A stretch of DNA of 64,000 nt from positions 1 through 64,000 of IMG/VR virus record IMGVR_UViG_3300005264_000008, one strand, 5' to 3'. Below, one piece after another: positions 2,865 to 62,152 of the stretch (position 1 is the first letter of the stretch; each line of letters begins with the position of its first letter). The notes under the pieces were generated by a model. It had not been told where the DNA came from. It saw only the letters and a program-made list of their open reading frames with translations, and did not search any database. The stretch comes from a virus. A program made the translations under genes and the position numbers.

Positions 2865-3342
2865 TATGTTCAATATTTAATAGATTCCTTTTTGTTAAAT
2901 GCCCTGTAAATATTATACTAACATTCCATCCGTATAATTTACTTAAATCTTTATTTGTATTTGGATTTCGTTTCATAAACAATTGATTTTCAATTTTGTG
3001 TGTTAATTCCCAAAAATTATTATTCCAATGTATGATATCACCAACATCAATATACACATCTTTATCTACAACTTCATCACGAGAAAACGATATTCGTATT
3101 GTCTGCATAATATCATATCCAAAGTCTTCATAATTACTTGACTGCTCATCAACACTAATCAATGCATTAAGCCTAATTGGTGTTTTGTATATTTTTTTCT
3201 CGCTTTCACCATATATATTATCTTTCGTGGCAATAATATCAAACCGAAACACATCAATTTTAGTATCAATCACATTATTCAATAATTCTTTATTTATCGC
3301 TTTGAATAATCGAATATCTCTTATTTTACCATATAAAGCCAT
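2857..3342 (-). CDS. Putative virion connector/neck-type protein
   Basis: 161 residues starting MALYGKIRDIRLFKAIN. The middle holds GDIIHWNNNFWEL, a short motif resembling segments of phage head-tail connector or tail-completion proteins (a 'boundary plus W-x-x-x-F/Y-W-E' pattern). That resemblance is weak and from memory. The gene overlaps its downstream neighbour by a few bases and shares one base with the tagged gene at 3342, so it belongs to the tail operon. No enzyme motif is visible. A virion structural role is inferred mainly from position. Confidence 0.45.
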   Translation of the reverse strand: MALYGKIRDIRLFKAINKELLNNVIDTKIDVFRFDIIATKDNIYGESEKKIYKTPIRLNALISVDEQSSNYEDFGYDIMQTIRISFSRDEVVDKDVYIDVGDIIHWNNNFWELTHKIENQLFMKRNPNTNKDLSKLYGWNVSIIFTGHLTKRNLLNIEHND

Positions 3343-3749
3343 TAGAATAATTCATAATCATAATCTATATCATTTTTCTTTAATAACGATGTGATTGATT
3401 TCATATCAGCTCGACCTTTCAAATATACTGTTATTGAACCATCTGGTTGTGCGATTATATTTTTTTTATTTGGTTCTAAAATTATACCAAACGATTCATC
3501 AGATGATTTTTTTGATTCTTGTAGTTTCCGTATATCTTTAGCAGTATATCCAAATTTATATTTTAATAATTTGACTGCATCTTTTTTTTCTGATGCTGTT
3601 TTAGTTGAACTTTGTATTGTTTTAATTGCCAATTTATGTTCGCTATGACTGACATAATTATAGTCAGTTGGAATTGTTTTTGCTTCTTTAAGTTGTTCAC
3701 TAATAATATTTGTTATTAGTGTGTTTAATTGTTTTTTTGTCATTTTCAT
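3342..3749 (-). CDS. Small protein with the shared MKxTKKxL N-terminal tag
   Basis: 135 residues. The N-terminus, MKMTKKQLNTLITNIISEQ, is one of at least twelve copies in this window of a basic amphipathic tag. Here the tag is followed by LKEAK, giving possible (L/I)xE-type cleavage sites. The rest is Lys/Ser-rich (residues about 40-85), then a small alpha/beta segment ending SLLKKNDIDYDYELF. It lies directly downstream of the tape-measure gene. The 18-base gap contains ACTATTTATATAAAAAT, nearly the same leader as before the tagged gene at 49356, so a late promoter is possible. Function unknown; inferred to be packaged with, or assembled into, the virion. Confidence 0.6.
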   Translation of the reverse strand: MKMTKKQLNTLITNIISEQLKEAKTIPTDYNYVSHSEHKLAIKTIQSSTKTASEKKDAVKLLKYKFGYTAKDIRKLQESKKSSDESFGIILEPNKKNIIAQPDGSITVYLKGRADMKSITSLLKKNDIDYDYELF

Positions 3750-3767: not shown

Positions 3768-6257
3768 TTAAATTCCATTTACTTTCATTTTATTCATTTT
3801 TAATCCCAAATATCTACCAACTTCTCTATCGTTAATATAAACACCTCCACCTTTGTTTAGAGTAGAAACTAAATTATCAACACTAGAAATTAATTTATCC
3901 ATTTTACTATCTTTTGATTCATCGCTTTTGCCACTTCCACCTGTCATAATAGGCTTTAATTTCGTTGTTAGCGTTGTTAATGTTGCTAGTATAGGTATCA
4001 TAGGTGTGATTGCCAATAAAGACCCTGCAAACGATAAAATACCCACTCCCATCAATGCAAACCCTTCACCTATCGAAGATAAACTTCCGCTTATAGAAGA
4101 AAGTTGCATTATGAGTGGTATGAATGCTGTAATTGGATTTACTATCATTTGCAATCCAAGTCCTAACATAGAAAGTGCACCACCCAAAGCAAGGAAACCA
4201 AGTACACCAGCTCCAAATAATATTGCACCTGGTCCAGTTAATAACGCACCCAATCCAAACATTGCAAGTGTTAGCCCTACAAGTGCAGTACCAGCAATAC
4301 CAAGTGTTTTCCAATCAATATCAGTAAATTGTTGCAATGCATAACCTAATGGTATTAAAGAAGCACTCATAATTGCCAATGCAATTGAACCCTTTAGTAT
4401 ACCACCACCCATTTTACTAATTACTTTCATAATTCCTGCCATTGCAAGCATAGAACCCATACCCATTAAGGCAGATTCAAATGGAACATCAGCAAATTGT
4501 TTTAATGCTATTGCTAACAATGGTATTGTGACAATGATTACACCGATTGCAAGACTAAATTTCGCAAGGGCTTTCAAATCTAACTTTTTCCAGCCATTAA
4601 TCCAATTGACAATTGGATTTCCTTTCATTTTTGAAATGCCATCTTTTCCGATTGCACCTGTTGTTTTTGATAAATCTTTACCTTTTGATGCTGATGATAA
4701 TAATTTAGAAGATGTACCACCTGTTTCTGTTGCACTTTGAATTGCTTTTCCTTTAAGTAATCCAGAAATCCATTGACCTACTCCTCTTACCATTTTACCC
4801 ATTCCTTTGAATATACCTGGCATTAGTGATTTCATTGATGATAATGCCATAACACTAGACATTAAAAGTTCTTTTTGTTCCCAAGCTCCTTTAACCATTC
4901 CCTGTACTTTAATTACATTATCTCCTAATGCACTACCATATACATCATGAATTTTACCTAATTTTTCTTGCTGTGAAATCATTGTTTGCATTTGGTCAGT
5001 TGACATTCCAAGTGACTCTGCTACTTTTTGTCGTTGTATCACATCCCATTCATTCCATTCCGAAATAGTGAATTGATTATTCAATATTTCTTTCATCATA
5101 CCTGCATGGTCACGTGCTAATGCTAATTCACGTGCTTTATTAAAATTCAATTGCTTTCCTGTTAATACACTTGCACTCATTTCTGCTTCAATACTACTAT
5201 CAATATCAAGTAAACTACTAGAAATTTGGTCAATTGTTCCAAGTGATAATCCTAATTGTTGAGCCGATACGGCCGCATTTATAATATTGTTAGTTCCAGC
5301 TTTAGAATATTTAGCGAAATATTCAGTATTTTGTGCAACTTCCCCCATCGTTTTACCAGTACTCACACCACCTGCTTTCGCAATATTTTCATATATTTTA
5401 AAACTATCTTCAGCAGATTGATTTGTTAGTGGTTGTATATCGGAGAACATTTTATACAATTTAGCACCATCATTTACTGCTAAACCATAATAAGTAGACA
5501 TTTTTCCAACTTGTACAATTGCTTCATCAGTAACATCGTTAATATCTTTAAATTCATCATATAATGCAGATGCTGATTCACCAGCTTTACCTAATCCAAC
5601 ACCAAATGCTAAACCTTTCACAGATGCAATTGACATGTTTTTTGCTAAAATCATACTATCACTGCCACTTAACCCCATTTCGACTCTAGTATCAAGCATA
5701 CTTTGTGCTAATTCACCACCACTTTTTGCCAATGATGCCATGAATACTCCACCTGCAACTTTTGGATTTTTTGCCATTGTAGTTAATGTTTTAGTAAACC
5801 CATCCACCCTTTTTCCAATGTTCATCAACTTTTCACGTTGTTCTTCTAAAATGTCATTTTCTTCATTTAAAATATCGATTTGAGTTTTACCTTTATCATT
5901 CACAAGAGTTTTAGAATCAATCATATCTTGTAGCATTTGCAATTGAATTGTCATTGCTTTTTGTTGATTCTCATTCATATCATCACCTAATAGTTTCATT
6001 GCTTTTGTAACTGAGAACTTTTTTAATTCTAATGTGTTACCGTCTTTTAGATTTTGCAATTGGTCTTTGACTATATCTGCTAATCCCATATTAAGAGATG
6101 CACGACCTTTATCAATATTAAATAATACCTTTGATTGTTTTGTTAATTTCACAGCCATATCAGTAACATCAGCAAAATGATTCTGCTGAATATTACTCAT
6201 TTCTTTAATTTGATTTTGTAAGTCTAATCCAAAATCACGAATGTCATCGAATTCCAT
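3768..6257 (-). CDS. Tail tape measure protein
   Basis: 829 residues. The N-terminal half is long, largely helical and coiled-coil-like (LQNQIKEMSNIQ... LKDGNTLELKKF), followed by an Ala/Gly/Ser-rich part. Residues about 560-770 contain several hydrophobic segments (for example LAIGVIIVTIPLLAIALK and LAMFGLGALLTGPGAILFG). The protein ends with a short VYINDREVGRYLGLKMNK segment. Coiled coil plus a hydrophobic C-terminal third, in a tail cluster and preceded by two small genes, is the normal organisation of tape measure proteins, which set tail length and pass into the host envelope. The length is modest for a myovirus, suggesting a tail in the T4 length range. No lytic transglycosylase or peptidase domain is evident. 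Confidence 0.85.
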   Translation of the reverse strand: MEFDDIRDFGLDLQNQIKEMSNIQQNHFADVTDMAVKLTKQSKVLFNIDKGRASLNMGLADIVKDQLQNLKDGNTLELKKFSVTKAMKLLGDDMNENQQKAMTIQLQMLQDMIDSKTLVNDKGKTQIDILNEENDILEEQREKLMNIGKRVDGFTKTLTTMAKNPKVAGGVFMASLAKSGGELAQSMLDTRVEMGLSGSDSMILAKNMSIASVKGLAFGVGLGKAGESASALYDEFKDINDVTDEAIVQVGKMSTYYGLAVNDGAKLYKMFSDIQPLTNQSAEDSFKIYENIAKAGGVSTGKTMGEVAQNTEYFAKYSKAGTNNIINAAVSAQQLGLSLGTIDQISSSLLDIDSSIEAEMSASVLTGKQLNFNKARELALARDHAGMMKEILNNQFTISEWNEWDVIQRQKVAESLGMSTDQMQTMISQQEKLGKIHDVYGSALGDNVIKVQGMVKGAWEQKELLMSSVMALSSMKSLMPGIFKGMGKMVRGVGQWISGLLKGKAIQSATETGGTSSKLLSSASKGKDLSKTTGAIGKDGISKMKGNPIVNWINGWKKLDLKALAKFSLAIGVIIVTIPLLAIALKQFADVPFESALMGMGSMLAMAGIMKVISKMGGGILKGSIALAIMSASLIPLGYALQQFTDIDWKTLGIAGTALVGLTLAMFGLGALLTGPGAILFGAGVLGFLALGGALSMLGLGLQMIVNPITAFIPLIMQLSSISGSLSSIGEGFALMGVGILSFAGSLLAITPMIPILATLTTLTTKLKPIMTGGSGKSDESKDSKMDKLISSVDNLVSTLNKGGGVYINDREVGRYLGLKMNKMKVNGI

Positions 6258-6259
6258 TA

Positions 6260-6802
6260 TTAGTCAAGTTTAGTGTTATTCATCAAGTCTTCAAATTCTT
6301 CTGGACTAAGTCCATATTCATTTGCTAAGTCATGCTCATATTTTTTCATTATAGTATCCACCTTTTTTTTATTTTTCTTCACTGATTGCATCATTTCGGG
6401 ATGGTCATTATTGAATTTTTTAATGGCATCTCGTTCAATTGTTTTATGAATACTTTTAAAAAAATTTGTGAAGAATCCTTCGTCTATATTAGATTTTTCT
6501 GATAATATTTTCGGTGTATTAACATATTTCATCAATCTAATTCTTATTGTATTATCTTCGTTCATATATTCAGATGTCAATCTTATTAAATCTGATAATA
6601 TGTTGTTATAATTCTCAGAAATGAAAAACGTTTCATCGAACATTAAATCTATCATTGAAGTGTCGTATTTTTTAGTATCTACTCTTACTTGTTTGATTGT
6701 TTTTTCTCCAATGATATTAATATTATGTTTTTCTAATATTTCATCATATCTTTTTAATAATTCATATGTAACTTTTTTTAATTTTCGTTGCTTTATATTC
6801 AT
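6260..6802 (-). CDS. Hypothetical protein upstream of tape measure (possible tail assembly chaperone)
   Basis: 180 residues, charged and helical, starting MNIKQRKLKKVTYELLKRYDE. Its C-terminal part (about 110-180) contains FFKSIHKTIERDAIKKF and ends in an acidic helix (LSPEEFEDLMNNTKLD). It sits 2 bases upstream of the tape-measure gene, the usual place of tail assembly chaperones. I see no slippery site joining it to the next gene, so a frameshifted chaperone pair as in lambda G/GT is not supported. The role is inferred from position only. Confidence 0.5.
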   Translation of the reverse strand: MNIKQRKLKKVTYELLKRYDEILEKHNINIIGEKTIKQVRVDTKKYDTSMIDLMFDETFFISENYNNILSDLIRLTSEYMNEDNTIRIRLMKYVNTPKILSEKSNIDEGFFTNFFKSIHKTIERDAIKKFNNDHPEMMQSVKKNKKKVDTIMKKYEHDLANEYGLSPEEFEDLMNNTKLD

Positions 6803-6808
6803 GAGTTT

Positions 6809-7159
6809 TCAGTTTATTTTCAATATGTGTTTAGGAATTTGTTCAATTGTATATAATTCATATAATTTATGAATTGCTTTGTGTTTATTATTGACAATAT
6901 AATAAATCATAAAATTATCTAAATTTATTAATACCGAATCTATTTTATCAATATATGGTTGAATTCGTTTTGTTATAATATTATGCATCAATTTTATTGA
7001 TTTTATTTTTAAATCATCTCCAAAAGCATCATCAATATAATATGAAATTACATTATTAGTATCAACACTTGCATTTGAAAATGTCAATGTTTCATCATTT
7101 TGAAATGTGTATTTATAATTGTATATCGCATATGTACATATTATATTTAAGTAATCCAT
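6809..7159 (-). CDS. Hypothetical small protein, first gene of the tail operon
   Basis: 116 residues, Tyr/Ile/Asn-rich, starting MDYLNIICTYAIYNYKYTF. No membrane segment or motif is recognised. It is the first gene of the minus-strand tail operon that runs to the left edge. Its start lies 2 bases past the bidirectional late-promoter-like palindrome at 7162-7180. Together with the next gene it occupies the slot where T4-type phages carry baseplate or tail-assembly factors. Confidence 0.5.
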   Translation of the reverse strand: MDYLNIICTYAIYNYKYTFQNDETLTFSNASVDTNNVISYYIDDAFGDDLKIKSIKLMHNIITKRIQPYIDKIDSVLINLDNFMIYYIVNNKHKAIHKLYELYTIEQIPKHILKIN

Positions 7160-7620: not shown

Positions 7621-7657
7621 AACAAAAAGGGACTTCAATTTGAAGTCCCTTTTTGTT
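7621..7657. terminator. Bidirectional intrinsic terminator
   Basis: A perfect inverted repeat: AACAAAAAGGGACTTCAA (7621-7638) pairs with TTGAAGTCCCTTTTTGTT (7640-7657). It has a GC-containing core and flanking A and T tracts, so it ends transcripts on both strands. It separates the plus-strand unit ending here from the convergent GGDEF gene, whose stop codon it overlaps. Confidence 0.85.
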
Positions 7658-8072
7658 ACCGTATACTCTTTTTCCATTTACATTTAGAGTGTATCATTTC
7701 AGTATCTGCATGATGTATGGTTTCAATTAAATTATTATCATATATACTCATACCAACTGAAAATATATCATTTGTAATAATTTTGTTTCTTGTATTTGAT
7801 AATAAAATGAATTCATCACCACCATATCGAATTAGTATATCTGTTTTATCGAGTTTAATTGTATTGATACAGTCTTTAATATATTCATCACCAATTGAAT
7901 GTCCTTTTTTATTTATAACATGTAAATTGTTAATATCAATATAGTATACATATTTAGCACTAATATTATCAATATTTTGGTGTAACCAATTTCGATTTAA
8001 CAATCCTGTTAATAAATCATGGTATGCAATATACTTTAACTTTCTGTATTCTTTTATTAATTTAATTATCAT
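7656..8072 (-). CDS. Minimal GGDEF-domain protein (putative diguanylate cyclase)
   Basis: 138 residues, essentially one GGDEF domain. Visible landmarks are HDLLTGLLNRNWL (18-30), YYIDINNLHVINKKGHSIGD (43-62) with metal-binding Asp46 and the substrate-recognition Asn54 and Asp62, then RYGGDEF (82-88), VGMSIYD and HADTEMIHSK near the C-terminus. These match active GGDEF enzymes, which make c-di-GMP (or, in the Hypr subgroup, cGAMP) from NTPs. The inhibitory I-site RxxD before GGDEF is absent (DKTD instead), and the helices between GGDEF and the SxG strand are shortened. There is no sensor or membrane domain. The start overlaps the stop of the radical SAM gene as ATGA, so the two are coupled. 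Activity is inferred, not shown. Confidence 0.85.
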   Translation of the reverse strand: MIIKLIKEYRKLKYIAYHDLLTGLLNRNWLHQNIDNISAKYVYYIDINNLHVINKKGHSIGDEYIKDCINTIKLDKTDILIRYGGDEFILLSNTRNKIITNDIFSVGMSIYDNNLIETIHHADTEMIHSKCKWKKSIR

Positions 8073-9058
8073 TTGAATTGATTGTATTGTTTATATTTAT
8101 TATTGTAATCAATACATACATCAAGACAATTATTCCTACAAATGTCATCTATAAATGTATTGTGTTCGGCAAACCAATTGAATCGTTCTTCTCGCATTTT
8201 ATTAGACACTTTTCCAATAGCTTTTCCTTTTTCTCGCATATATATTACACATGGATAATGATAATCACCAGCTATCACCGAATCATCTAATACTAATGCA
8301 CATTTGGTTGTGTCTGTGTTTTGAATCCCCCGAACATTCCTACCAATTGCAAAATGTTTAATTCTATAATCTAATATCGGATGTGCCTTTCTAATATCAA
8401 TTTCAATTTCGTTTAATCTTGGGATTGGTTCGTTCCATTGTGCGGATGATATAATCCGAATATCATTAACACCAAGTAAATGTGCAAACCGAATAGTTTC
8501 AAGAGTATTGTCAATATTAGTTGGTGTTAGAACTACACCTACAGTAACATATGTTAATTTAGATAATATTCTTATATTATTAACCACAATATCCCATGAA
8601 CCACTGATGTTTCCTGCCATTTTATCACCATCTATAGCACAACACGCATCTAATGATATTGAAAAATCATTCACACCAGCGTTAATCAATTGTTTATATA
8701 AATCTGTTTTATTAGACCCATTTGTCGATAATGCAATTCGTGATATTCCTTTCTGTTTGGAATATCGCACAATTTCAATTATATCTTTATGTAAGGTTGG
8801 TTCTCCACCCGAAAAACGAATGTTTTCAAGTGGACTATTTTCACACCATAAATCAATATTATGCTTTATTTCACCTAAACTCAATTGTTTAAATTTACGA
8901 TTTCCATATACTTCATCACCAAGACCTCTGCAATAAGGACAGCTAAAATTACAATATTCAGTAATTATCATTTCACAACGTTTCATTTGTGAATATTGAC
9001 TTGTGTTTTTTACTCGATTGTCGTATAAACTATAAAATCCAATTTCTTCTAATTTCAT
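8069..9058 (-). CDS. Radical SAM protein with SPASM-like C-terminus
   Basis: 329 residues. The radical SAM cluster motif is CNFSCPYC (Cys36, Cys40, Cys43), followed by FSGGEPTLHKDI for SAM binding and STNGS. The C-terminal part carries further cysteines (KCALVLDD, PCVIYM, ICRNNCLDVC), as in SPASM/twitch domains that hold auxiliary Fe-S clusters. Such enzymes modify peptides or proteins, or act in cofactor synthesis; MoaA is the nearest general fold. The substrate cannot be read from the sequence. It lies 9 bases after the lipoprotein gene and overlaps the GGDEF gene, so all three probably share the promoter at 9701. Confidence 0.85.
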   Translation of the reverse strand: MKLEEIGFYSLYDNRVKNTSQYSQMKRCEMIITEYCNFSCPYCRGLGDEVYGNRKFKQLSLGEIKHNIDLWCENSPLENIRFSGGEPTLHKDIIEIVRYSKQKGISRIALSTNGSNKTDLYKQLINAGVNDFSISLDACCAIDGDKMAGNISGSWDIVVNNIRILSKLTYVTVGVVLTPTNIDNTLETIRFAHLLGVNDIRIISSAQWNEPIPRLNEIEIDIRKAHPILDYRIKHFAIGRNVRGIQNTDTTKCALVLDDSVIAGDYHYPCVIYMREKGKAIGKVSNKMREERFNWFAEHNTFIDDICRNNCLDVCIDYNNKYKQYNQFK

Positions 9059-9067
9059 GATTATCGT

Positions 9068-9673
9068 TTATTTTTTATTTTCTGTTTTTAATAGTTTTAT
9101 GATTGTATACACCTTTTGTGTATATTTAGGGTCAGTTGCATATCCACATGCAGATATTTCAATACATAATTCAGCAATAGTTGTTGCTTCCATTAATGGT
9201 TTATAACGAAGTTTTCCTTTATTTTCGGTGGTTTTTATGATAGTAAAAAAATTATGAAAACAATCACTAAATGAATAGAATACAGCAAATTCACCCGATA
9301 CTTGTTTTAATTCTTTATTTATATATTCATTTGTGCCATATAAAACTGAAGGTCGTAGCTTTAATTTCTTAATTCCTAATAAATTATTATGAAATGTCAA
9401 TTGACTTTTTAAATTACCTGATTCGAGTAACACCATTGCTCCAATAAAATATATCAAATCTTCACTATCACATGCAAAGTATTCTATGTTTGAATCTACC
9501 TGTATTTTAATGACAGGTTTTATTAAGTTAAACACTTCAAGTTGCGATAAGTCATTTTCAAATACTTGTTTAATTATATGACTATCATTATTTGTATATA
9601 TTTCATCTGATGTTGTGCACGATGTCAATGCTAATGATACTAATACTAGTGTAAATAATGTTAATTTTTTCAT
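9068..9673 (-). CDS. Lipoprotein with glucosaminidase-like domain
   Basis: 201 residues. The N-terminus MKKLTLFTLVLVSLALTSC is a lipoprotein signal peptide with the lipobox cysteine at 19. The remainder resembles the FlgJ/LytG glucosaminidase family: FIGAMVLLESGNLKSQL (probable catalytic Glu84), HNNLLGIK, EFAVFYSFSDCFHNFF and a C-terminal YATDPKYTQKVYTIIKLL. That family cleaves peptidoglycan between GlcNAc and MurNAc. A lipid anchor would place it in the periplasmic or outer-membrane leaflet of the host, so a role in lysis or in cell-wall change during infection is plausible. A second related protein is encoded at 14706. Confidence 0.75.
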   Translation of the reverse strand: MKKLTLFTLVLVSLALTSCTTSDEIYTNNDSHIIKQVFENDLSQLEVFNLIKPVIKIQVDSNIEYFACDSEDLIYFIGAMVLLESGNLKSQLTFHNNLLGIKKLKLRPSVLYGTNEYINKELKQVSGEFAVFYSFSDCFHNFFTIIKTTENKGKLRYKPLMEATTIAELCIEISACGYATDPKYTQKVYTIIKLLKTENKK

Positions 9674-12459: not shown

Positions 12460-13473
12460 TTATTTGATTTTAATTAAGCAATCATATACTACTTTAGGAA
12501 CTTCAATATATGAGTTGTTTTTGAAATATAGTATATATATCTTTTTAGCTTTCAATCTTTTTTCATATTCTATTTGTTTGGACATATCTAGTTTATGATG
12601 ATATAATCTATTAAATGCTGTTTCTCCACTTAATATTTTTTTATTGACAATTAAACCATTATTAATAATTGTTTCTAATGTCATTGTATCATTATCACCT
12701 AAAATATATTGTTTTTTTAATATTTTCGGTAATCGACCTTTAATAGTTGGTGACAAACTATCCCAATTAATATCATATGTTTTTTTAACATTTCGAGGAC
12801 GATATTCAAAATCGGGTCGGAATGATGAATTAATAGGGCAATTTATAAATATGTCCATTGAACTTTTTACATTACTAACATTCCATTTGGATATATTTTT
12901 ATTAAACATAGAATTAGAAAACATAAAATTCATATTTTTTACATTACTAACATTCCATTTGGATATATCACCGTTGAATAAACTTTCTTCAAACATACTT
13001 TCCGTATTAGTTACATTACTAACATTCCATTTGGATATATTTTTATTAAACATAGAATTAGAAAACATACCTTCCATGCTTTTTACATTACTAACATTCC
13101 ATTTGGATATATCACTATTGAAAACGGATTTGTCAAATACATGTTGCATATTAGTTACATTGCTAACATTCCATTTAGAAATATCACCATTAAATTTAGA
13201 CCTTGAAAACATACGTTGTATATTTTTTACATTGCTAACATCCCATTTAGAAATATTACCATTGAATGCACTATTCCGAAACAATTTAGACATATCAGTA
13301 ACACGACCAGTATCAATGAAATTTAAATCTACATTATTACCATGTTTTTTAATCGTTGATTCTACTAATTGCTTTAAATGTTTTGAATCTTTTGCTATTA
13401 TTTCGATGAAGTCACCATTCAAATATTTTTGAATCGAATCATTGATTATTTCTGTTAATTGTTTTTTTGTCAT
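12460..13473 (-). CDS. BspA/DUF285-type repeat protein with the shared N-terminal tag
   Basis: I chose ATG 13471-13473 (MTKKQLTEIINDSIQKYLNG), because this is the tag seen in other proteins; the longer frame upstream runs through ATAAAT repeats and a TTG. 337 residues. Residues about 65-215 contain six copies of ISKW(N/D)VSNV spaced exactly 24 residues apart, with MF and SxFNGD between them. This is the BspA-like/DUF285 repeat found in surface proteins of Bacteroidetes and mycoplasmas. The C-terminal 120 residues are unique. DUF285 repeats mediate protein binding in cellular proteins. Here the tag suggests a packaged or virion-associated protein; that is inference. Confidence 0.75.
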   Translation of the reverse strand: MTKKQLTEIINDSIQKYLNGDFIEIIAKDSKHLKQLVESTIKKHGNNVDLNFIDTGRVTDMSKLFRNSAFNGNISKWDVSNVKNIQRMFSRSKFNGDISKWNVSNVTNMQHVFDKSVFNSDISKWNVSNVKSMEGMFSNSMFNKNISKWNVSNVTNTESMFEESLFNGDISKWNVSNVKNMNFMFSNSMFNKNISKWNVSNVKSSMDIFINCPINSSFRPDFEYRPRNVKKTYDINWDSLSPTIKGRLPKILKKQYILGDNDTMTLETIINNGLIVNKKILSGETAFNRLYHHKLDMSKQIEYEKRLKAKKIYILYFKNNSYIEVPKVVYDCLIKIK

Positions 13474-13510
13474 ATTTATATTTATATTTATATTTATATT
13501 ATTATATTTA

Positions 13511-13518
13511 TAATAAAT
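13511..13518 (+). promoter_or_regulatory. TAATAAAT late-type promoter box
   Basis: TATAATAAATAGTAT precedes the ATG at 13527 by about 10 bases. It matches the element at 7171 (TATAAATAGTAT) in sequence and in its close spacing to the start. On the opposite strand, ATAAATATAAATATAAATATA repeats precede the tagged gene at 13473. Confidence 0.4.
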
Positions 13519-13526
13519 AGTATGCA

Positions 13527-14288
13527 ATGAAACAAAATATAAACGAAGTATCACATTTATTTGGAAAGGGTGATGTTGATGACGGACCTAAAATGTTTGA
13601 TGTAACATTAAAAAGTTATGAACGGAGAATTAACAGTATTGCCAAAATGCAAGGATTATCAGTAATTGATAATATGATTGGTAATAAAACAATAACAAAC
13701 TTTGACCCACAAGAATACAATCCAATTACGGATGTAACACAGTTTCCAAGTGGAATTGATACAGGTATTATTATGTCTACATTAGAAAATACGAAATCTT
13801 ATAAAGAATGGTTGAAGATTATAAAATTAATATTACAGCCATCTGATTTAGTAATGATTGATGATTTGGATGCTAATATGAGTATTGGTAATAATTTAAT
13901 TGAATCATATATTGAAAATATGTCTGATAAAATTTTCATTGATGAATTATATGATAAAAATAGTGGTATAATGTACGATGATGAGCAATCATTATCAATG
14001 TTATCGAATGTCATTAAACAAAAATATGATTTGGTACTAACATTCAATTCAAATAATGGGTATAAGTATAAAACACTAATTAATGATAAATCACATAAAA
14101 TAATTCGCAAAATGTTTGGTGAGTTTCCTAAAAATAGTGATGTTTATTTATGTATGAATTTTAATGAAGAGCGAAACGAAGTACAATTATTATTAGTAGA
14201 CGAAAACAAAAAAATTGTTAATAATTCACGAATAATTAAATTTGTACAATATAAAATGAGATGGACAGAAGATACAAATCTTTCATAA
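13527..14288 (+). CDS. Hypothetical protein, possibly late
   Basis: 253 residues starting MKQNINEVSHLFGKGDVDD, acidic, with no signal peptide or membrane segment. A middle part (LVMIDDLDANMSIGNNLIES) and a C-terminal alpha/beta part (DVYLCMNFNEERNEVQLLLV) are visible, but no family is recognised. It has its own late-type promoter box and is followed by a strong terminator, so it is a single-gene unit. Confidence 0.6.
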   Translation: MKQNINEVSHLFGKGDVDDGPKMFDVTLKSYERRINSIAKMQGLSVIDNMIGNKTITNFDPQEYNPITDVTQFPSGIDTGIIMSTLENTKSYKEWLKIIKLILQPSDLVMIDDLDANMSIGNNLIESYIENMSDKIFIDELYDKNSGIMYDDEQSLSMLSNVIKQKYDLVLTFNSNNGYKYKTLINDKSHKIIRKMFGEFPKNSDVYLCMNFNEERNEVQLLLVDENKKIVNNSRIIKFVQYKMRWTEDTNLS

Positions 14289-36398: not shown

Positions 36399-39300
36399 AT
36401 GAAAAAATATTCGCACTCCACTGTACATGATGAAACAATGAAATATTTTGATAATGATGTATTAGCAACCGATGTATGGATGAAGAAATACGCATTGAAA
36501 GATTCCGATGATAATTATTACGAATTAACACCTGATGACATGCATCATCGAATAGCAAGTGAACTTGCACGTGTTGAAAAAAAATATCCTAACCCTATGG
36601 GCGAAGATGAAATATTTGAATTATTAAAAGACTTTAAATATGTCATACCTGCTGGTTCTAATTTATTTGGTATTGGCAATGATAAATATTTAACAAGTCT
36701 TAGTAATTGCTTTTATATACATCATGATAACAATGATAGTTATGGAGGGATAATGAAATTAGATGAAGAATTAGTTCACCTTTTCAAAAGAAGATGTGTC
36801 GAAGAAAATTCACATGTGATGACTTTAAATAATGGATTATTAAGAATAAAAAATATTACTAAAGGTGATATGGTGTTATCTTATAATACTAAAACCCAAA
36901 AATCCGAATATAAAAAGGTAATTGATAAATTTGATACTTTTGTTGATAAAGATGATAGAATAATAATAAAACTATCAAATGGAAGCCAATTAAAAACATC
37001 AAAAAAACATCCAGTTTTGACATTTTCTGAAATTGGAGAATATGTTTATAAAAATGCAGGAGATATACAAAAAGGTGATATTTGTATATCATCTTTGACT
37101 AAAAATAATTATAATGTTTATAATTTTGATAAAAAATTATCTGATATTGCATGGTTCACAGGACATCATCTGGGAGATGGTACATGTGGTAAAAATAAGT
37201 TACGTTTTAGAATATTAGGGGATAATGAAAAATGTATTGCAGAGTATGCATCTATTTTGAATGACATAACAGGCTCAACTGCAAAATATGGGTTATCTAA
37301 AAAGAAAGGTTATTTAGTTGATGTATGGGACTATACTAATAATAAAAAATCTTTAAACGATGTATTAGTTAGATATTTGGATAACCAGCGTGGAAAAAAA
37401 ACATATTCAATGTTTACTCCAAATTTTATAAAAAATAATAATTTATGGATACCTTTCATAGCAGGTTTAATAGATGCAGATGGAACAGTAACAGCAGATG
37501 GTAGATTATCGTTAACACTAACATCAAAAACAATGATAGATGAAATAAATTCTTATCTGTTATATAATGGTATCAGTTGTCATGTGAGTGTTAAGATTGA
37601 CAAACGCAATTCAAAATGGAAACCGCTTTATACATTACGATTTCATAAAGATGTTGAATTTTATTCTAATATATTAAAATATCTTATTCATGATAAAAAA
37701 AGACAACGTCTTATTGAAAATAAAATAACGGTTCATTCGTATAAAAGATTTATAACTGAAGAAGAACATAATGAAATGTTGAATAATTATAGTTCTAAAG
37801 GATTTTATAAATATAATAGAAACAACAAAGCACCAAAAGAATTTAATATTAAACGGAAACAATTGCAAAGTGCTATTGATACTGTGAAAGGTAATAATGG
37901 ATTAGGTATAAGTGCTTTAAATATACTGTTAAAACATGATATTATAAATAATGATAAGTATAATGAGATTAATCAACGTGTTTTTGTTACGAATGTAAGT
38001 ATAGATAATGATAGTTCTAAATATATTGATATTGAAGTCGATGGTAATCATAATTTTTATGCAGGTAATTTTGGCGGAATCGTAACTCATAATTGTGGAG
38101 TCGGAATTGATGTGTCATTTTTAAGACCCAAAAATTCTAAAGTTAATAATGCGGCCTTAACAACAACTGGTGCAGTGAGTTTTATGAATAGATTTAGTCA
38201 TACAACTGAAGAAGTTTCTCTTTTAGGTCGTAGGGCCGCACTAATGATTACAATGGATGTTAGTCATCCTGAAATTGAAGATTTTATTTCAATAAAACAA
38301 GATTTAACAAAAGTAACAGGGGCAAATGTATCAATTAAAATAACAGATGATTTTATGTTAGCTGTTAAAGAAAATAATGAATTTGAATTGAAATTTCAAA
38401 TGGCAGATAAGTCTTGGATAAGAAAAAAGGTAAACGCTAAACAGATATGGGACAAATTTATAAATGCAAGCTGGAATTCAGCCGAACCTGGATTGTTATA
38501 TTGGGATAAAATAAAAAGAGAATCACCTTCCGATGGTTACGAAGGGTTTGATTTACAGGGGGTTAATCCATGTTCTGAATTAACGCTATCAGATTCAGAG
38601 AGTTGTAGATTAACATCTATTAATTTAACTGCTTTTGTTAAAAATAGTTTCACTGAAAAAAGTATGTTTGATTTTGAACAATTCAAAAATGTAGCGATTA
38701 AAGCTCAGAGATTGATGGACGATATAACTGATTTAGAAATAGAAAAAATAAATTCGATTTTACAAAAAATTGAACAAGACCCTGAGAATGCCGATGTGAA
38801 ATTTAGAGAAATTTCCTTATGGAAAAAAATATTAGATAAAGCAACTGATGGTAGACGTTCAGGATTAGGTATAACTGGATTGGCTGACATGTTAGCAATG
38901 CTCGGATATACATATGGAACACACGAAGCAACTTCATTTTCAGAAAAAATATTTATAGATTTAGCAAAATCGTCATATGAATCTTCAATAAACATGGCTA
39001 AAGAAAGAGGAGCTTTTAAAAATTGGTCAATTGATAAAGATAAAAAAAGTGATTTTATAAATAGATTATTATATGAAACCATAGACTCAGACGTTTTTGA
39101 ATTATATAAAAAATATGGTCGTAGAAATATCGCAAATTTAACAATTGCACCAAATGGGTCATTGAGTTTATTGAGTAAAACATCATCAGGTGTTGAACCT
39201 GTTTTCATGGTTAAACATAAAAGACGAAGAAGAGCAACAGAAACAGATTCAGTTGATTTCATTGATGATGTTGGTAATAAATGGAAAGAATATCTTGTAT

Positions 39301-40139
39301 TTCATCCTAAGTTCGAAGAATGGTTTAATAAAAATAATACTAATAAAAAACTAAAAGATTTAACAGAAAGTGAAATAGATGATATTATAACAAAATCTCC
39401 ATACTATAATGCAACAGCACAAACGATAGATTACATAGAAAAAATTAGGATGCAAGGAATCATTAATAAATGGATAGACCATAGCATTTCAATGACTGTT
39501 AATTTACCAAATAATATAACCAAAAAACAAGTGTCAGATTTATATATGAAAGGTTGGGAATATGGTTTAAAAGGAATGACTATTTATAGAGATGGTTCAC
39601 GTTCGGGTGTATTAGTTGCAACTGATTCTAAAAAAGAAGTAACACCAGATAGACCAAAAGAAATACCATGTGATATACATTATATTCAAGCAAATAAGAT
39701 AAAATATTATGTTATAGTTGGTTTAGTTAATGACAAACCATATGAAATATTTGCATTTGAAAAGAAACATATTTCAATACCGCAAATTAGAAAAGATGGT
39801 AAATTAATAAAAGTTAAATCAGGTATGTATAATTTAAAATATAATGGTACTGAAATTGAAAATATTGCTCAACATTTTCAATCACCACAAGAAGATGGTT
39901 TTACTCGAATGGTATCATTATTATTAAGACGTGGAAATTCAGTAGCAGATATAACAGAACAAATTGATAAATCATATAGTGCTATATCAGGATTTTATAA
40001 AGCAATTTCACGAGTATTACGTAAAAATTATACTTCAGATGGTAAAATAGACGAAAAATGTCCGCAATGTAATGCTAATTTAGTAATGAAAGAAGGATGT
40101 AAATCATGTCCTGCATGTGGATTTGAATTTTGTGGTTAA
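36399..40139 (+). CDS. nrdJ: Class II (B12-dependent) ribonucleotide reductase precursor with intein
   Basis: 1246 residues encoding an extein of 813 residues interrupted by a 433-residue intein. The joined extein reads LVHLFKRR + CGVGIDVSFLRPKN, then TTTGAVSFMNRFSHTTEEVS, NPCSELTL with the active-site cysteine, IAPNGSLSLLSKTSSGVEP and a C-terminal CPACGFEFCG redox/zinc region. This matches the adenosylcobalamin-dependent NrdJ of Bacteroidetes, which reduces ribonucleotides without oxygen or a separate NrdB. The residue after the splice site is Cys where intein-free relatives have Gly (RRGGVG, from memory). It supplies dNTPs for phage replication. Confidence 0.9.
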   Translation: MKKYSHSTVHDETMKYFDNDVLATDVWMKKYALKDSDDNYYELTPDDMHHRIASELARVEKKYPNPMGEDEIFELLKDFKYVIPAGSNLFGIGNDKYLTSLSNCFYIHHDNNDSYGGIMKLDEELVHLFKRRCVEENSHVMTLNNGLLRIKNITKGDMVLSYNTKTQKSEYKKVIDKFDTFVDKDDRIIIKLSNGSQLKTSKKHPVLTFSEIGEYVYKNAGDIQKGDICISSLTKNNYNVYNFDKKLSDIAWFTGHHLGDGTCGKNKLRFRILGDNEKCIAEYASILNDITGSTAKYGLSKKKGYLVDVWDYTNNKKSLNDVLVRYLDNQRGKKTYSMFTPNFIKNNNLWIPFIAGLIDADGTVTADGRLSLTLTSKTMIDEINSYLLYNGISCHVSVKIDKRNSKWKPLYTLRFHKDVEFYSNILKYLIHDKKRQRLIENKITVHSYKRFITEEEHNEMLNNYSSKGFYKYNRNNKAPKEFNIKRKQLQSAIDTVKGNNGLGISALNILLKHDIINNDKYNEINQRVFVTNVSIDNDSSKYIDIEVDGNHNFYAGNFGGIVTHNCGVGIDVSFLRPKNSKVNNAALTTTGAVSFMNRFSHTTEEVSLLGRRAALMITMDVSHPEIEDFISIKQDLTKVTGANVSIKITDDFMLAVKENNEFELKFQMADKSWIRKKVNAKQIWDKFINASWNSAEPGLLYWDKIKRESPSDGYEGFDLQGVNPCSELTLSDSESCRLTSINLTAFVKNSFTEKSMFDFEQFKNVAIKAQRLMDDITDLEIEKINSILQKIEQDPENADVKFREISLWKKILDKATDGRRSGLGITGLADMLAMLGYTYGTHEATSFSEKIFIDLAKSSYESSINMAKERGAFKNWSIDKDKKSDFINRLLYETIDSDVFELYKKYGRRNIANLTIAPNGSLSLLSKTSSGVEPVFMVKHKRRRRATETDSVDFIDDVGNKWKEYLVFHPKFEEWFNKNNTNKKLKDLTESEIDDIITKSPYYNATAQTIDYIEKIRMQGIINKWIDHSISMTVNLPNNITKKQVSDLYMKGWEYGLKGMTIYRDGSRSGVLVATDSKKEVTPDRPKEIPCDIHYIQANKIKYYVIVGLVNDKPYEIFAFEKKHISIPQIRKDGKLIKVKSGMYNLKYNGTEIENIAQHFQSPQEDGFTRMVSLLLRRGNSVADITEQIDKSYSAISGFYKAISRVLRKNYTSDGKIDEKCPQCNANLVMKEGCKSCPACGFEFCG
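36795..38093 (+). other. Intein with LAGLIDADG homing endonuclease within nrdJ
   Basis: 433 residues, precursor 133-565. It starts with Cys (CVEENSHVMTLNNGLLRIKN), block B is SKKHPVLTF, the endonuclease blocks are WFTGHHLGDGT and FIAGLIDADGTV, and the C-terminal end is HNFYAGNFGGIVTHN with the splicing Asn before the +1 Cys. All residues needed for splicing (Cys1, block B His, penultimate His, Asn, Cys+1) are visible. Both LAGLIDADG acidic residues are present, so homing activity is likely retained. Confidence 0.92.
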
Positions 40140-51890: not shown

Positions 51891-51962
51891 AATAAAATGA
51901 AAATAACAAAGAAACAATTAACAGAAATCATAACTGAGTCAGTACAAAAATATTTGAATGAA
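51891..51962 (+). repeat. 72-bp direct repeat, copy 1 (encodes the tag)
   Basis: The stretch from AATAAAATGAAAATAACAAA through TATTTGAATGAA recurs at 52211-52282 with a single difference (A/G at 51950/52270). It covers the ribosome-binding leader and the first 22 codons of both genes, while the sequences after it are unrelated. This shows recent duplication or conversion of the tag-coding segment. Confidence 0.9.
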
Positions 51963-52208
51963 AATAAATATAAATCAAACAGTAAAGAATCAAATATTGT
52001 AGATATGTTTTATGATACATGGGCAAAAAATAAACAATTTCCACAACTAAAACAAAAATCAATTGACCCAATTGAAGTGGATTCTACAAATGGAATTATT
52101 AAATTGAAATTTACTATTGATGAGATTTTTAATAACAAAGGTAAAATAGAAAAAATAAAGCCAGAAAAGTACAATATTGATTTGAAATTTGAAATTACGA
52201 AAATATAA
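51897..52208 (+). CDS. Tagged hypothetical protein
   Basis: 103 residues: the tag MKITKKQLTEIITESVQKYL then NE, followed by a Ser/Lys-rich linker and a small beta domain (NGIIKLKFTIDEIFNNKGKI). The tag is identical to that of the next gene. LNE after the tag is a possible prohead-protease-type site. Function unknown. Confidence 0.6.
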   Translation: MKITKKQLTEIITESVQKYLNENKYKSNSKESNIVDMFYDTWAKNKQFPQLKQKSIDPIEVDSTNGIIKLKFTIDEIFNNKGKIEKIKPEKYNIDLKFEITKI

Positions 52209-52210
52209 AT

Positions 52211-52282
52211 AATAAAATGAAAATAACAAAGAAACAATTAACAGAAATCATAACTGAGTCAGTACAAAAGTATTTGAATGAA
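52211..52282 (+). repeat. 72-bp direct repeat, copy 2 (encodes the tag)
   Basis: This is the second copy of the repeat at 51891-51962, with one mismatch at 52270. It begins one base after the preceding gene's stop region and spans the start and tag of the gene at 52217. Confidence 0.9.
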
Positions 52283-52552
52283 GTTATGGGTTATAATATG
52301 AAAGCAAGTGATAAAAAATTCATATCAAGTTGGATTAATGGTAATCTAAAAGAAGGAGATAATAACCAGCGTTTATCAATAGAAAAAGGTAATATACTAT
52401 CTGGTGTAATGTCTAATTTGGCAAGGATTAAAGATATGGTACTATATTATGGTTATGCATATGGTAATGTATCACAAACATATATTAATTATATTAAAAA
52501 AACAGCAAAACAAAACGGACTTACGTTAAAATACTCTGAAAAAATTTATTAA
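52217..52552 (+). CDS. Tagged hypothetical protein
   Basis: 111 residues with the tag MKITKKQLTEIITESVQKYL, then NEVMGYNMKASDKKFISSWI and a helical body (SGVMSNLARIKDMVLYYGYA). The body is unrelated to that of the previous gene despite the identical tag. Function unknown. Confidence 0.6.
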   Translation: MKITKKQLTEIITESVQKYLNEVMGYNMKASDKKFISSWINGNLKEGDNNQRLSIEKGNILSGVMSNLARIKDMVLYYGYAYGNVSQTYINYIKKTAKQNGLTLKYSEKIY

Positions 52553-52960: not shown

Positions 52961-53809
52961 ATGAAACTATCTAAGAAAAAACTAACAACTTTAATTTTAA
53001 ACGAAATTAAAAAGCAAACTGGAAAAAGTTCGGTTAATGAAAATATTGAACAATTGCAAATGCGTAAAGAAATTTCTGAAAATTATGATAAACTAAATAA
53101 CGAAGCATTAGAAGTGAAACCGACTAAAAGAATAGGACGTGGTACATTTAATGTTGTAAGTTTAAGTGGCGGTGAAAGTGGTGAATACACAAAAGTAGCA
53201 CAAAGATTTATTGATATGAATAACCATCTATCTAAAACAGAAACACAATTAAAAGATGTTAATAAAATTTTAGATAAAAAAATAATCGAATTTAAAAACG
53301 AACTAAAAAAATCGAGTGGATTGGATATTGATAGTATTGAAGATAAAGTCAAAACTCTAAAATCACAAGTGAAAATAAAACAAAAAGAACTATTCGACTA
53401 TTCAATAAATAATATATTTGGAAAACTTCGTGATGAAATAGACAGTACAATTGGAATAATAGTTGAAACAAAAAGCTTAACATCACAATTTAATGCACCT
53501 GCTAAAAAAATTGATTATATTAAAATATTAAATGAATTAGTTAAAATAAACGCAGTTAGTCAAGATGTAATAGACAATATTACACAGCAATTTACAACTT
53601 TTGATGATACGAAGCGAAAATTGAAAGAAATCGTCCCTAATATCAATGAAAATAATTTACGAGAAGGGTTATTTAATAAAGTTAAAATGTTATTCGTAAA
53701 CATATGGATTAAAATGAAAAATTCATTTACTTCATTACTTGCATCTACACATTTAAAAAATAAGCAATTGAATAAATCTTTAAAACATATTAACAGACAA
53801 ATAAACTAA
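52961..53809 (+). CDS. Tagged helical protein
   Basis: 282 residues. The tag variant is MKLSKKKLTTLILNEIKKQT, followed by GKSSVNENIE. A short Gly-rich stretch (RIGRGTFNVVSLSGGESGEY) precedes long coiled coils (residues about 85-150) and a helical end (LFNKVKMLFVNIWIKMKNSF). The tag DNA is close to that of the next gene. Function unknown. Confidence 0.55.
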   Translation: MKLSKKKLTTLILNEIKKQTGKSSVNENIEQLQMRKEISENYDKLNNEALEVKPTKRIGRGTFNVVSLSGGESGEYTKVAQRFIDMNNHLSKTETQLKDVNKILDKKIIEFKNELKKSSGLDIDSIEDKVKTLKSQVKIKQKELFDYSINNIFGKLRDEIDSTIGIIVETKSLTSQFNAPAKKIDYIKILNELVKINAVSQDVIDNITQQFTTFDDTKRKLKEIVPNINENNLREGLFNKVKMLFVNIWIKMKNSFTSLLASTHLKNKQLNKSLKHINRQIN

Positions 53810-53814
53810 ATAAC

Positions 53815-54711
53815 ATGAAATTAACAAAGAAAACTTTAACAACTTTAATTTTAAAAGAAATTAAAAAGCAAACTAAAAAAAGTTTAGTAGTAACTGAATC
53901 AATTCGTGATAAAGTATTAATTGAAAATACAATTAGTAAAATTAAAAATAGTAAATTAACATATTTAAAAAAGAAAAAATATATTAATGCTATTACTGAG
54001 AACATTGGCAATGCAAAGAAAGTAAGTAAATATTTAACAGAAGGCATTGATAAAAAGTTGTTAACATTACAAAAATATCTTACAAAAGAATATGGTAAAC
54101 AATATGAAGATGTGATTGAACATGAATATGATAATACTTATTCATATAATGATGAAGAATATATTGTATTAACCGATAAAGAAGCTGATGAACTTGCAGT
54201 TGAGTACATGAAAGATTTATTAGATGATATTGGAATTGAAGGTACAAATCTAAATCAAGAAGACTATATCAATAATACAGACTGGTTTGATACTGCTATG
54301 CAAGAATCATATGAAAGTTATGTAAAAGAAATTGAAAATGAAAGTGATAATACATACGATAATAGATTAATTGCAGAATTAGTTGAAACTGGTTTGTTAG
54401 ATGATGATGATTTTGAAACTGATGAAGATGGTGATATTGATTATTATAATTTAAACGATGATGTTAATTTAGATGATAAAAGGGAAAAATATATTGAAGT
54501 GTTAATGGATAATTATTCAGATAGTGTCGAATGGTTTAAAAGTAATTTTGGTGATGACGAATTTAATGATATATTAAAAGATAAAGATTTAATAGATATT
54601 GATAGAGTTGTTGACGATATAATCCGCATTGACGGTAGAGGTAGTGTAATATCATCATATGATGGAGCAGAAAACAAATTAAATAACTTTTATATATATC
54701 GAACGAGTTAA
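53815..54711 (+). CDS. Tagged acidic protein
   Basis: 298 residues. The tag is MKLTKKTLTTLILKEIKKQT, followed by KKSLVVTESI. A basic helix (KLTYLKKKKYINAITENIGN) is followed by a strongly acidic body rich in Asp, Glu and Tyr (LLDDDDFETDEDGDIDYYNL). The bipolar charge is unusual. The body could mimic DNA or bind a basic partner; this is speculation. The leader ACTAAATAACATGAAA is repeated before the next gene. Confidence 0.55.
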   Translation: MKLTKKTLTTLILKEIKKQTKKSLVVTESIRDKVLIENTISKIKNSKLTYLKKKKYINAITENIGNAKKVSKYLTEGIDKKLLTLQKYLTKEYGKQYEDVIEHEYDNTYSYNDEEYIVLTDKEADELAVEYMKDLLDDIGIEGTNLNQEDYINNTDWFDTAMQESYESYVKEIENESDNTYDNRLIAELVETGLLDDDDFETDEDGDIDYYNLNDDVNLDDKREKYIEVLMDNYSDSVEWFKSNFGDDEFNDILKDKDLIDIDRVVDDIIRIDGRGSVISSYDGAENKLNNFYIYRTS

Positions 54712-61579: not shown

Positions 61580-62152
61580 TTAGGATTGAGTATTATCATA
61601 AAATCCATTGCGATTAAGATATTGTTTCATCTTACTAAATGAATACTTATTATAATCTGTATAATGTACAAAAACTGGATTACGACCTTTAACCCATTTG
61701 GTGAATTTCGGTAATGATTCAACTATACCATCAACATCTTCTTTATAAGTGTACATACCTATAATTTTATCCCTTTGATTATGAATCATAATTTCTTCAT
61801 ATCCATTTGAAAACGTGTGTTCTGCAAATCCTTCATTTAATTTCTTATTATTCATATATTTTTTAAAAAATGATTTTAATTCACCGATACTACCAGTGTT
61901 ATTTTTTATATCATCTATATAATTAAACTCATAATCAAAATCTAGCTGGTCACATAATTTCTTATATTCACCGAGCACATACTGATATGCTTTAGATGTA
62001 TTTGATACGTTTGTTTTTGTGTTTGTTTTTGTTTGTATATATTTAGCTAAATCCACTATATTTAATTCAATGGATTCGTCCAAATGTACATTTATTTTTT
62101 TTCTAACAACTGTTTCAATTATGTTAGTTAATTCTTGTTTTGTTATTTTCAT
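61580..62152 (-). CDS. Tagged hypothetical protein
   Basis: 190 residues with the tag MKITKQELTNIIETVVRKKI, then NVHLDESIELNIVDLAKYIQ. The body is mixed alpha/beta, with KKLNEGFAEHTFSNGYEEIM and FVHYTDYNKYSFSKMKQYLN at the end. It is the last of three minus-strand genes with tag-like starts. Function unknown. Confidence 0.55.
   Translation of the reverse strand: MKITKQELTNIIETVVRKKINVHLDESIELNIVDLAKYIQTKTNTKTNVSNTSKAYQYVLGEYKKLCDQLDFDYEFNYIDDIKNNTGSIGELKSFFKKYMNNKKLNEGFAEHTFSNGYEEIMIHNQRDKIIGMYTYKEDVDGIVESLPKFTKWVKGRNPVFVHYTDYNKYSFSKMKQYLNRNGFYDNTQS

What the first reader, a model, noticed from the sequence alone, without database searches (positions are those of the whole stretch)
7656..8072. 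Phage-encoded minimal GGDEF cyclase lacking the feedback I-site
The 138-residue protein retains the metal, guanine and GGDEF residues of active cyclases but has no sensory domain, a shortened C-terminal lobe, and DKTD instead of the inhibitory RxxD. Known: GGDEF enzymes make c-di-GMP or, in the Hypr group, cGAMP, and cyclic nucleotides also drive anti-phage systems such as CBASS. A constitutively active cyclase from a phage could alter host motility or biofilm state, or act as a decoy or competitor in nucleotide-based defence.
Basis: partly seen in the sequence, partly recalled or inferred. Interest (0 to 1): 0.8.

Follow-up and report, generated by a model that had tools for sequence, protein, structure and literature searches.

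The report
Trimmed GGDEF cyclase paired with radical-SAM
A large phage carries a stripped-down version of the bacterial enzyme domain that makes the signal molecule cyclic di-GMP, and it sits next to a gene for an unrelated radical-chemistry enzyme in every close relative found, which suggests the two work together rather than the phage simply tampering with host biofilm signalling.

Summary
Window 7656-8072 (minus strand) encodes a 138-aa protein that is a real GGDEF domain (Pfam 3.3e-13; AF2 pLDDT 87, nearest solved fold the Thermotoga diguanylate cyclase). It has no sensory domain, no RxxD I-site, and lacks the helix after the GGDEF hairpin. The metal, catalytic and guanine-contact residues are invariant in its close family and dN/dS is about 0.1-0.2. 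Three other pocket residues are changed, and the guanine loop is one residue shorter. The family is tied to that enzyme: all 10 contigs of the close family recovered by its own patterns carry it, and 14 such contigs are known in all. A second, diverged palm family lies beside it or is fused to it in 5 more phages, one of 735 kb. Most of these phages lack Shine-Dalgarno sites, as Bacteroidota genes do. I read it as a probable cyclase serving a radical-SAM module of large phages. A motility/biofilm or CBASS-decoy role is unsupported. Activity and product are untested.

The parts
7656..8072 (-). mini-GGDEF protein, 138 aa: metal Asp46, Asn54, Asp62, GGDEF at 84-88, Lys130; no RxxD; no helix after the GGDEF hairpin
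8069..9058 (-). radical-SAM enzyme, 329 aa, MoaA/Twitch-like: CxxxCxxC at 36-43, C-terminal Cys 253, 270, 307, 311, 315; its TGA overlaps the ATG of the GGDEF gene (ATGA 8069-8072)
7621..7657 (-). perfect hairpin directly after the GGDEF stop codon followed by a T-rich stretch; probable end of the transcript
   Evidence: -23.7 kcal/mol, z -7.6, 0 of 200 shuffles as good; the consensus scan missed it
9068..9673 (-). glucosaminidase-type endolysin-like protein ending 10 bases upstream of the radical-SAM gene, same strand; possibly the same transcript

Best explanation
The protein is a trimmed GGDEF-fold nucleotidyl cyclase. It most likely still binds GTP with metal and probably condenses it to a cyclic dinucleotide, c-di-GMP by its specificity residues. 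It works as a dedicated partner of the radical-SAM enzyme whose gene it overlaps: the two are made together, and the cyclase either supplies or senses a guanine nucleotide that the radical-SAM enzyme uses or is regulated by. It is an accessory of a radical-SAM module, often with a third ~90-aa protein, that is widespread in large phages. Shown: homology, fold, residue conservation, purifying selection, overlap and conserved linkage. Inferred: catalysis, product, physical partnership, regulation.
For: GGDEF family and fold. Invariant in the aligned close family: Asp46, Asn54, Gly57-His58, Asp62, Arg82-Tyr83, Gly85-Asp86-Glu87-Phe88, Lys130. dN/dS 0.12-0.18 for the six closest pairs. Linkage: family A lies near the radical-SAM gene in 14 contigs other than the window. 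All 10 close-family contigs found by GGDEF patterns alone carry the radical-SAM gene, and the six distant phage GGDEFs found in the same scan do not. In 218-kb and 211-kb contigs the only family match lies 0.26 and 3.7 kb from the radical-SAM gene. A second palm family (SGDE) is beside it in four contigs and fused to its N-terminus in the 735-kb phage LR756503; a pattern scan for that family found only those four contigs. GGDEF and radical-SAM distances correlate (Mantel r 0.87, p 0.0002).
Against: No activity data. Residues corresponding to PleD Phe331, Lys332 and Asp336 are changed, and the guanine loop is one residue short in the close family. In EcGReg the matching Phe and Asp were needed and the Lys mutant was partly active (PMC5549716). 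About three quarters of the radical-SAM loci have no palm domain nearby, so it is not a core subunit. Linkage and correlated distances can also arise from shared inheritance in one phage lineage.
Confidence: 0.5

Rival explanations
1. It is a free-standing diguanylate cyclase that raises host c-di-GMP without feedback inhibition, to change host behaviour during infection. The radical-SAM neighbour is incidental.
For: GGDEF signature, specificity Asp and Asn kept, no I-site. Other phages carry GGDEF proteins: phage G gp350, Yuavirus, SP-15. AGDEF enzymes can be active (PMC5549716, citing VCA0965).
Against: Conserved linkage and fusion of palm domains to the radical-SAM enzyme. Likely hosts have few GGDEF genes. 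No dimerising sensor domain; pocket changes.
Confidence: 0.2
2. It is a non-catalytic GTP- or dinucleotide-binding regulatory subunit of the radical-SAM enzyme, an allosteric palm domain.
For: Trimmed lobe and changed pocket. The second palm family has lost the guanine Asp and GH yet keeps its linkage, and is fused in LR756503.
Against: Catalytic DE and the metal Asp are invariant in both families. A purely structural subunit would not need them.
Confidence: 0.2
3. It makes a cyclic nucleotide that acts as a decoy or competitor against host CBASS-type defence.
For: Minimal palm cyclases making decoy nucleotides exist on the host side (Panoptes OptS, PMC12657218).
Against: PADLOC gives no match for the protein, and no such effector or sponge was recognised beside the window gene. 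The specificity Asp predicts c-di-GMP, which some CBASS/STING effectors are activated by (own knowledge).
Confidence: 0.04
4. It is a decaying, non-functional remnant of a captured host GGDEF gene.
For: Short length; loss of one helix and the I-site.
Against: Consistent length (132-153 aa) in the complete copies, invariant catalytic residues, dN/dS well below 1, kept start/stop overlap.
Confidence: 0.03

Closest known systems
Thermotoga maritima diguanylate cyclase domain (tDGC; PDB 4urs, 4urg)
   Same: Best sequence match in the PDB (2.5e-17) and first in Foldseek (7e-8); same core strands, metal Asp and GGDEF hairpin.
   Different: The phage protein is shorter by the helix after GGDEF, has no RxxD, most relatives read AGDEF, and Phe/Lys/Asp pocket residues differ.
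Other phage GGDEF proteins: Bacillus phage G gp350, Bacillus phage SP-15, Yuavirus and Vojvodinavirus small GGDEF proteins
   Same: Phage-encoded GGDEF domains; those of Yuavirus PaSz-4 and Bordetella phage CN1 are also small, about 150 aa.
   Different: About 24-32% identity, other neighbours (antirestriction genes, metallophosphoesterases), no radical-SAM partner annotated beside them.
mCpol / OptS of Panoptes defence
   Same: Stand-alone minimal palm-fold cyclase (PMC12657218).
   Different: mCpol lacks the GGDEF signature and pairs with a 2TM-beta effector; here the signature is intact and the partner is a radical-SAM enzyme.
Radical-SAM MoaA / Twitch enzymes (MoaA 1tv7, BlsE 7vob, SkfB 6efn), for the neighbouring gene
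   Same: Radical-SAM core; C-terminal Cys set like a Twitch/SPASM cluster.
   Different: Far below the curated cut-offs of MoaA (81 vs 284 bits) and prokaryotic viperin (48 vs 180); a family of its own in large phages.

Membership tests
GGDEF domain (PF00990) | Score above the curated Pfam cut-off | tested here: met
   50.1 vs 23.8 bits
GGDEF domain (PF00990) | GGDEF fold | tested here: met
   AF2 pLDDT 87, Foldseek matches to diguanylate cyclases at probability 1.00; one helix of the canonical fold absent
Active diguanylate cyclase | Metal Asp and the D-E of the signature | tested here: met
   Asp46, Asp86, Glu87 invariant
Active diguanylate cyclase | Guanine-contact Asn and Asp | tested here: met
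   Asn54 and Asp62 invariant, but the loop between them is one residue short
Active diguanylate cyclase | Phe and Lys of DxDxFK, and Asp after the Asn | tested here: not met
   Leu, His/Lys/Arg/Thr, and Lys/Glu here
Active diguanylate cyclase | Homodimer with one GTP per subunit, and c-di-GMP production | not testable with these tools
   needs biochemistry
Feedback-inhibited diguanylate cyclase | RxxD I-site upstream of GGDEF | tested here: not met
   DKTD here; no R at that position in relatives
Hypr GGDEF (cGAMP-making) | Ser in place of the specificity Asp (own knowledge) | tested here: not met
   Asp62 kept
mCpol / Panoptes synthase | 2TM-beta effector partner gene | tested here: not met
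   The partner gene is radical-SAM; none recognised among the neighbouring genes scanned
MoaA (neighbouring gene) | NCBIfam equivalog cut-off | tested here: not met
   81 vs 284 bits
Prokaryotic viperin (neighbouring gene) | NCBIfam equivalog cut-off | tested here: not met
   48 vs 180 bits; the PADLOC pVip match covers residues 30-153 only

The most novel reading that the evidence does not exclude
The pair forms a two-enzyme phage pathway in which the palm-fold cyclase makes a (cyclic) dinucleotide and the radical-SAM enzyme chemically modifies it or its GTP precursor, giving a nucleotide signal or counter-defence molecule not yet described.
Probability: 0.12. Interest if true: 0.92.

Novelty: new variant of a known kind. 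Interest (0 to 1): 0.58.

Why it matters
GGDEF domains are read as c-di-GMP biofilm and motility enzymes. Here two diverged palm families are tied to a radical-SAM enzyme in large phages, and most of those phages look as if they infect bacteria with little c-di-GMP signalling. If the partnership is real, it would give GGDEF chemistry a role beyond host lifestyle signalling and open up a radical-SAM module of large phages that I found no account of in the papers searched. It also gives a direct test: what do the two proteins make together from GTP?

Tried and rejected
A single-sequence scan of viral contigs with the GGDEF protein found nothing; the family appeared only through the radical-SAM neighbour and then by alignment. 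My first profile of the second palm family included its own members, so its E-values were circular; I redid it with the close family alone (L060 4e-5, L090 0.16, L023 1.4) and with a profile of three second-family members (L084 2e-25, L023 2e-20), plus a direct profile comparison (hhalign probability 75%). Homology of that second family to GGDEF is therefore likely but not strong. EAL and PilZ partners: none in the phage records. The ~90-aa partner domain has no Pfam, PHROG or PDB match and could not be scanned for. RtcB and RNA ligases near other radical-SAM loci hinted at RNA repair, but such ligases are common in jumbo phages (PMC7824862), so I did not build on it. Viperin and MoaA identity were rejected on curated cut-offs. 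Promoter hits were at chance level. I found no paper describing this pair.

Full report
What is there. The ORF at 7656-8072 lies on the minus strand and encodes 138 aa. It matches Pfam GGDEF at 50.1 bits, E 3.3e-13, over the first 92 of 161 profile positions. AlphaFold2 with eight relatives gives pLDDT 87. Foldseek's first hits in the PDB are diguanylate cyclases, the Thermotoga domain first, which is also the best PDB sequence match. The strands and hairpin of the core are present. The helix that normally follows the GGDEF hairpin is missing, and the protein ends with the final helix. RxxD is replaced by DKTD, and no close relative has the Arg.

Active site. In the aligned family the metal Asp (46), the guanine-contact Asn (54) and Asp (62), Arg-Tyr 82-83, G-D-E-F 85-88 and Lys130 are invariant. 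Pairwise dN/dS is 0.12-0.18 for the six closest pairs, so the protein is kept under selection. There are also departures: Leu for Phe, a variable residue for Lys, Lys/Glu for the Asp after the Asn, and a loop one residue short between Asn and Asp in every close member. In the cyclase EcGReg, Ala at the matching Phe or Asp abolished function, Ala at Lys left partial function, and Ala at the first Gly of GGDEF abolished it too (PMC5549716). The same paper notes enzymes from Pectobacterium and Vibrio that are active with Ala there. Most members of this family read AGDEF; the window's own copy reads GGDEF. Catalysis is plausible, not shown.

The neighbour. The start codon overlaps by four bases (ATGA) the stop of a 329-aa radical-SAM gene at 8069-9058. 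A strong hairpin with a T-rich tail directly follows the GGDEF stop, so the two genes probably end one transcript. The radical-SAM protein is MoaA/Twitch-like by profile and fold but far below the cut-offs for MoaA and viperin. Its family was found in 88 viral contigs, 80 of them kept, and in the 735-kb phage LR756503.

Linkage. Among these loci, 14 contigs besides the window carry the mini-GGDEF family near the radical-SAM gene: overlapping in some, within 300 bases in others, and at 0.8-3.7 kb in the rest. To avoid the bias of searching through the radical-SAM gene, I also scanned with GGDEF patterns alone: all 10 close-family contigs carry it, while the six distant phage GGDEFs found in the same scan do not. 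A second, diverged palm family (SGDE signature, guanine Asp and GH lost) stands beside the radical-SAM gene in four contigs and is fused to its N-terminus in LR756503. A pattern scan for that family found only those four contigs. One of them, L084, lies in another part of the radical-SAM tree. GGDEF and radical-SAM distances correlate (Mantel r 0.87), as expected for co-inherited partners. Shared ancestry of one phage lineage explains part of this. The fusion and the second palm family argue for function.

The module. A ~90-aa domain with no database match lies next to, or is fused to the C-terminus of, the radical-SAM protein in 32 loci. It was not found in the window's record. RtcB ligases lie near the gene, often directly beside it, in 13 loci. 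Most radical-SAM loci have no palm domain nearby, so the cyclase is an accessory.

Hosts. Of ORFs of at least 100 aa, 13% have a Shine-Dalgarno-like site in the GGDEF-bearing loci (window 3 of 64) and 54% in the other radical-SAM loci. L102 and L049 are exceptions. Lack of these sites is typical of Bacteroidota (PMC6847099). One relative sits on a contig binned into an Ignavibacteria MAG; in 61 genomes sampled from that MAG's phylum, 27 had no GGDEF hit and most of the others had one. Host assignment is indirect. Under it, manipulating c-di-GMP biofilm circuits is a weak explanation.

Verdict. The protein is a genuine, conserved, trimmed GGDEF protein, new as a variant, whose most likely role is as partner of a radical-SAM enzyme.

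Noticed in passing
L072:8001-9245, L092:8001-9257, L116:8001-9236 (fused); L055:8995-9270, L084:9371-9667 and others: A ~90-aa domain with no Pfam, PHROG or PDB match (AIGxCxxExLxCRPK...AVMF...FWTHLTxxEF) beside or fused to the phage radical-SAM protein in 32 loci.
   Followed up: partly
L080:1421-2707 and 12 other loci; L102:3631-4785; L084:3442-4482: RtcB and ATP-grasp RNA ligase genes lie close to the radical-SAM gene in many loci, which might point to an RNA-related role of that enzyme.
   Followed up: partly
L018:4992-6901 (same contig as L090): The radical-SAM gene is split in two pieces (4992-5621 and 6512-6901) with an ORF resembling a GIY-YIG endonuclease (5654-6508) between them.
   Followed up: no
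window 36399-40139 (+): Ribonucleotide reductase large subunit of 1246 aa that appears to carry an intein with LAGLIDADG-like motifs.
   Followed up: no
window 3342-3749 (-), 51897-52208, 52217-52552, 52961-53809, 53815-54711, 61580-62152 (-) and others: Several otherwise unlike proteins share an N-terminal stretch MK(I/L/M)(T/S)KKxLxxxI; possibly a virion-targeting signal.
   Followed up: no
window 12460-13554 (-): Protein with repeats of the type WNVSNVTNMxxMF, resembling bacterial surface-protein repeats, in a phage.
   Followed up: no
L041:1707-2297, L042:5582-6160, L010:4592-5176: P-loop protein resembling sulfotransferases by eye (SGNTWVRY...LLRDP) between the radical-SAM and GGDEF genes; no Pfam match for L041 above chance.
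   Followed up: partly
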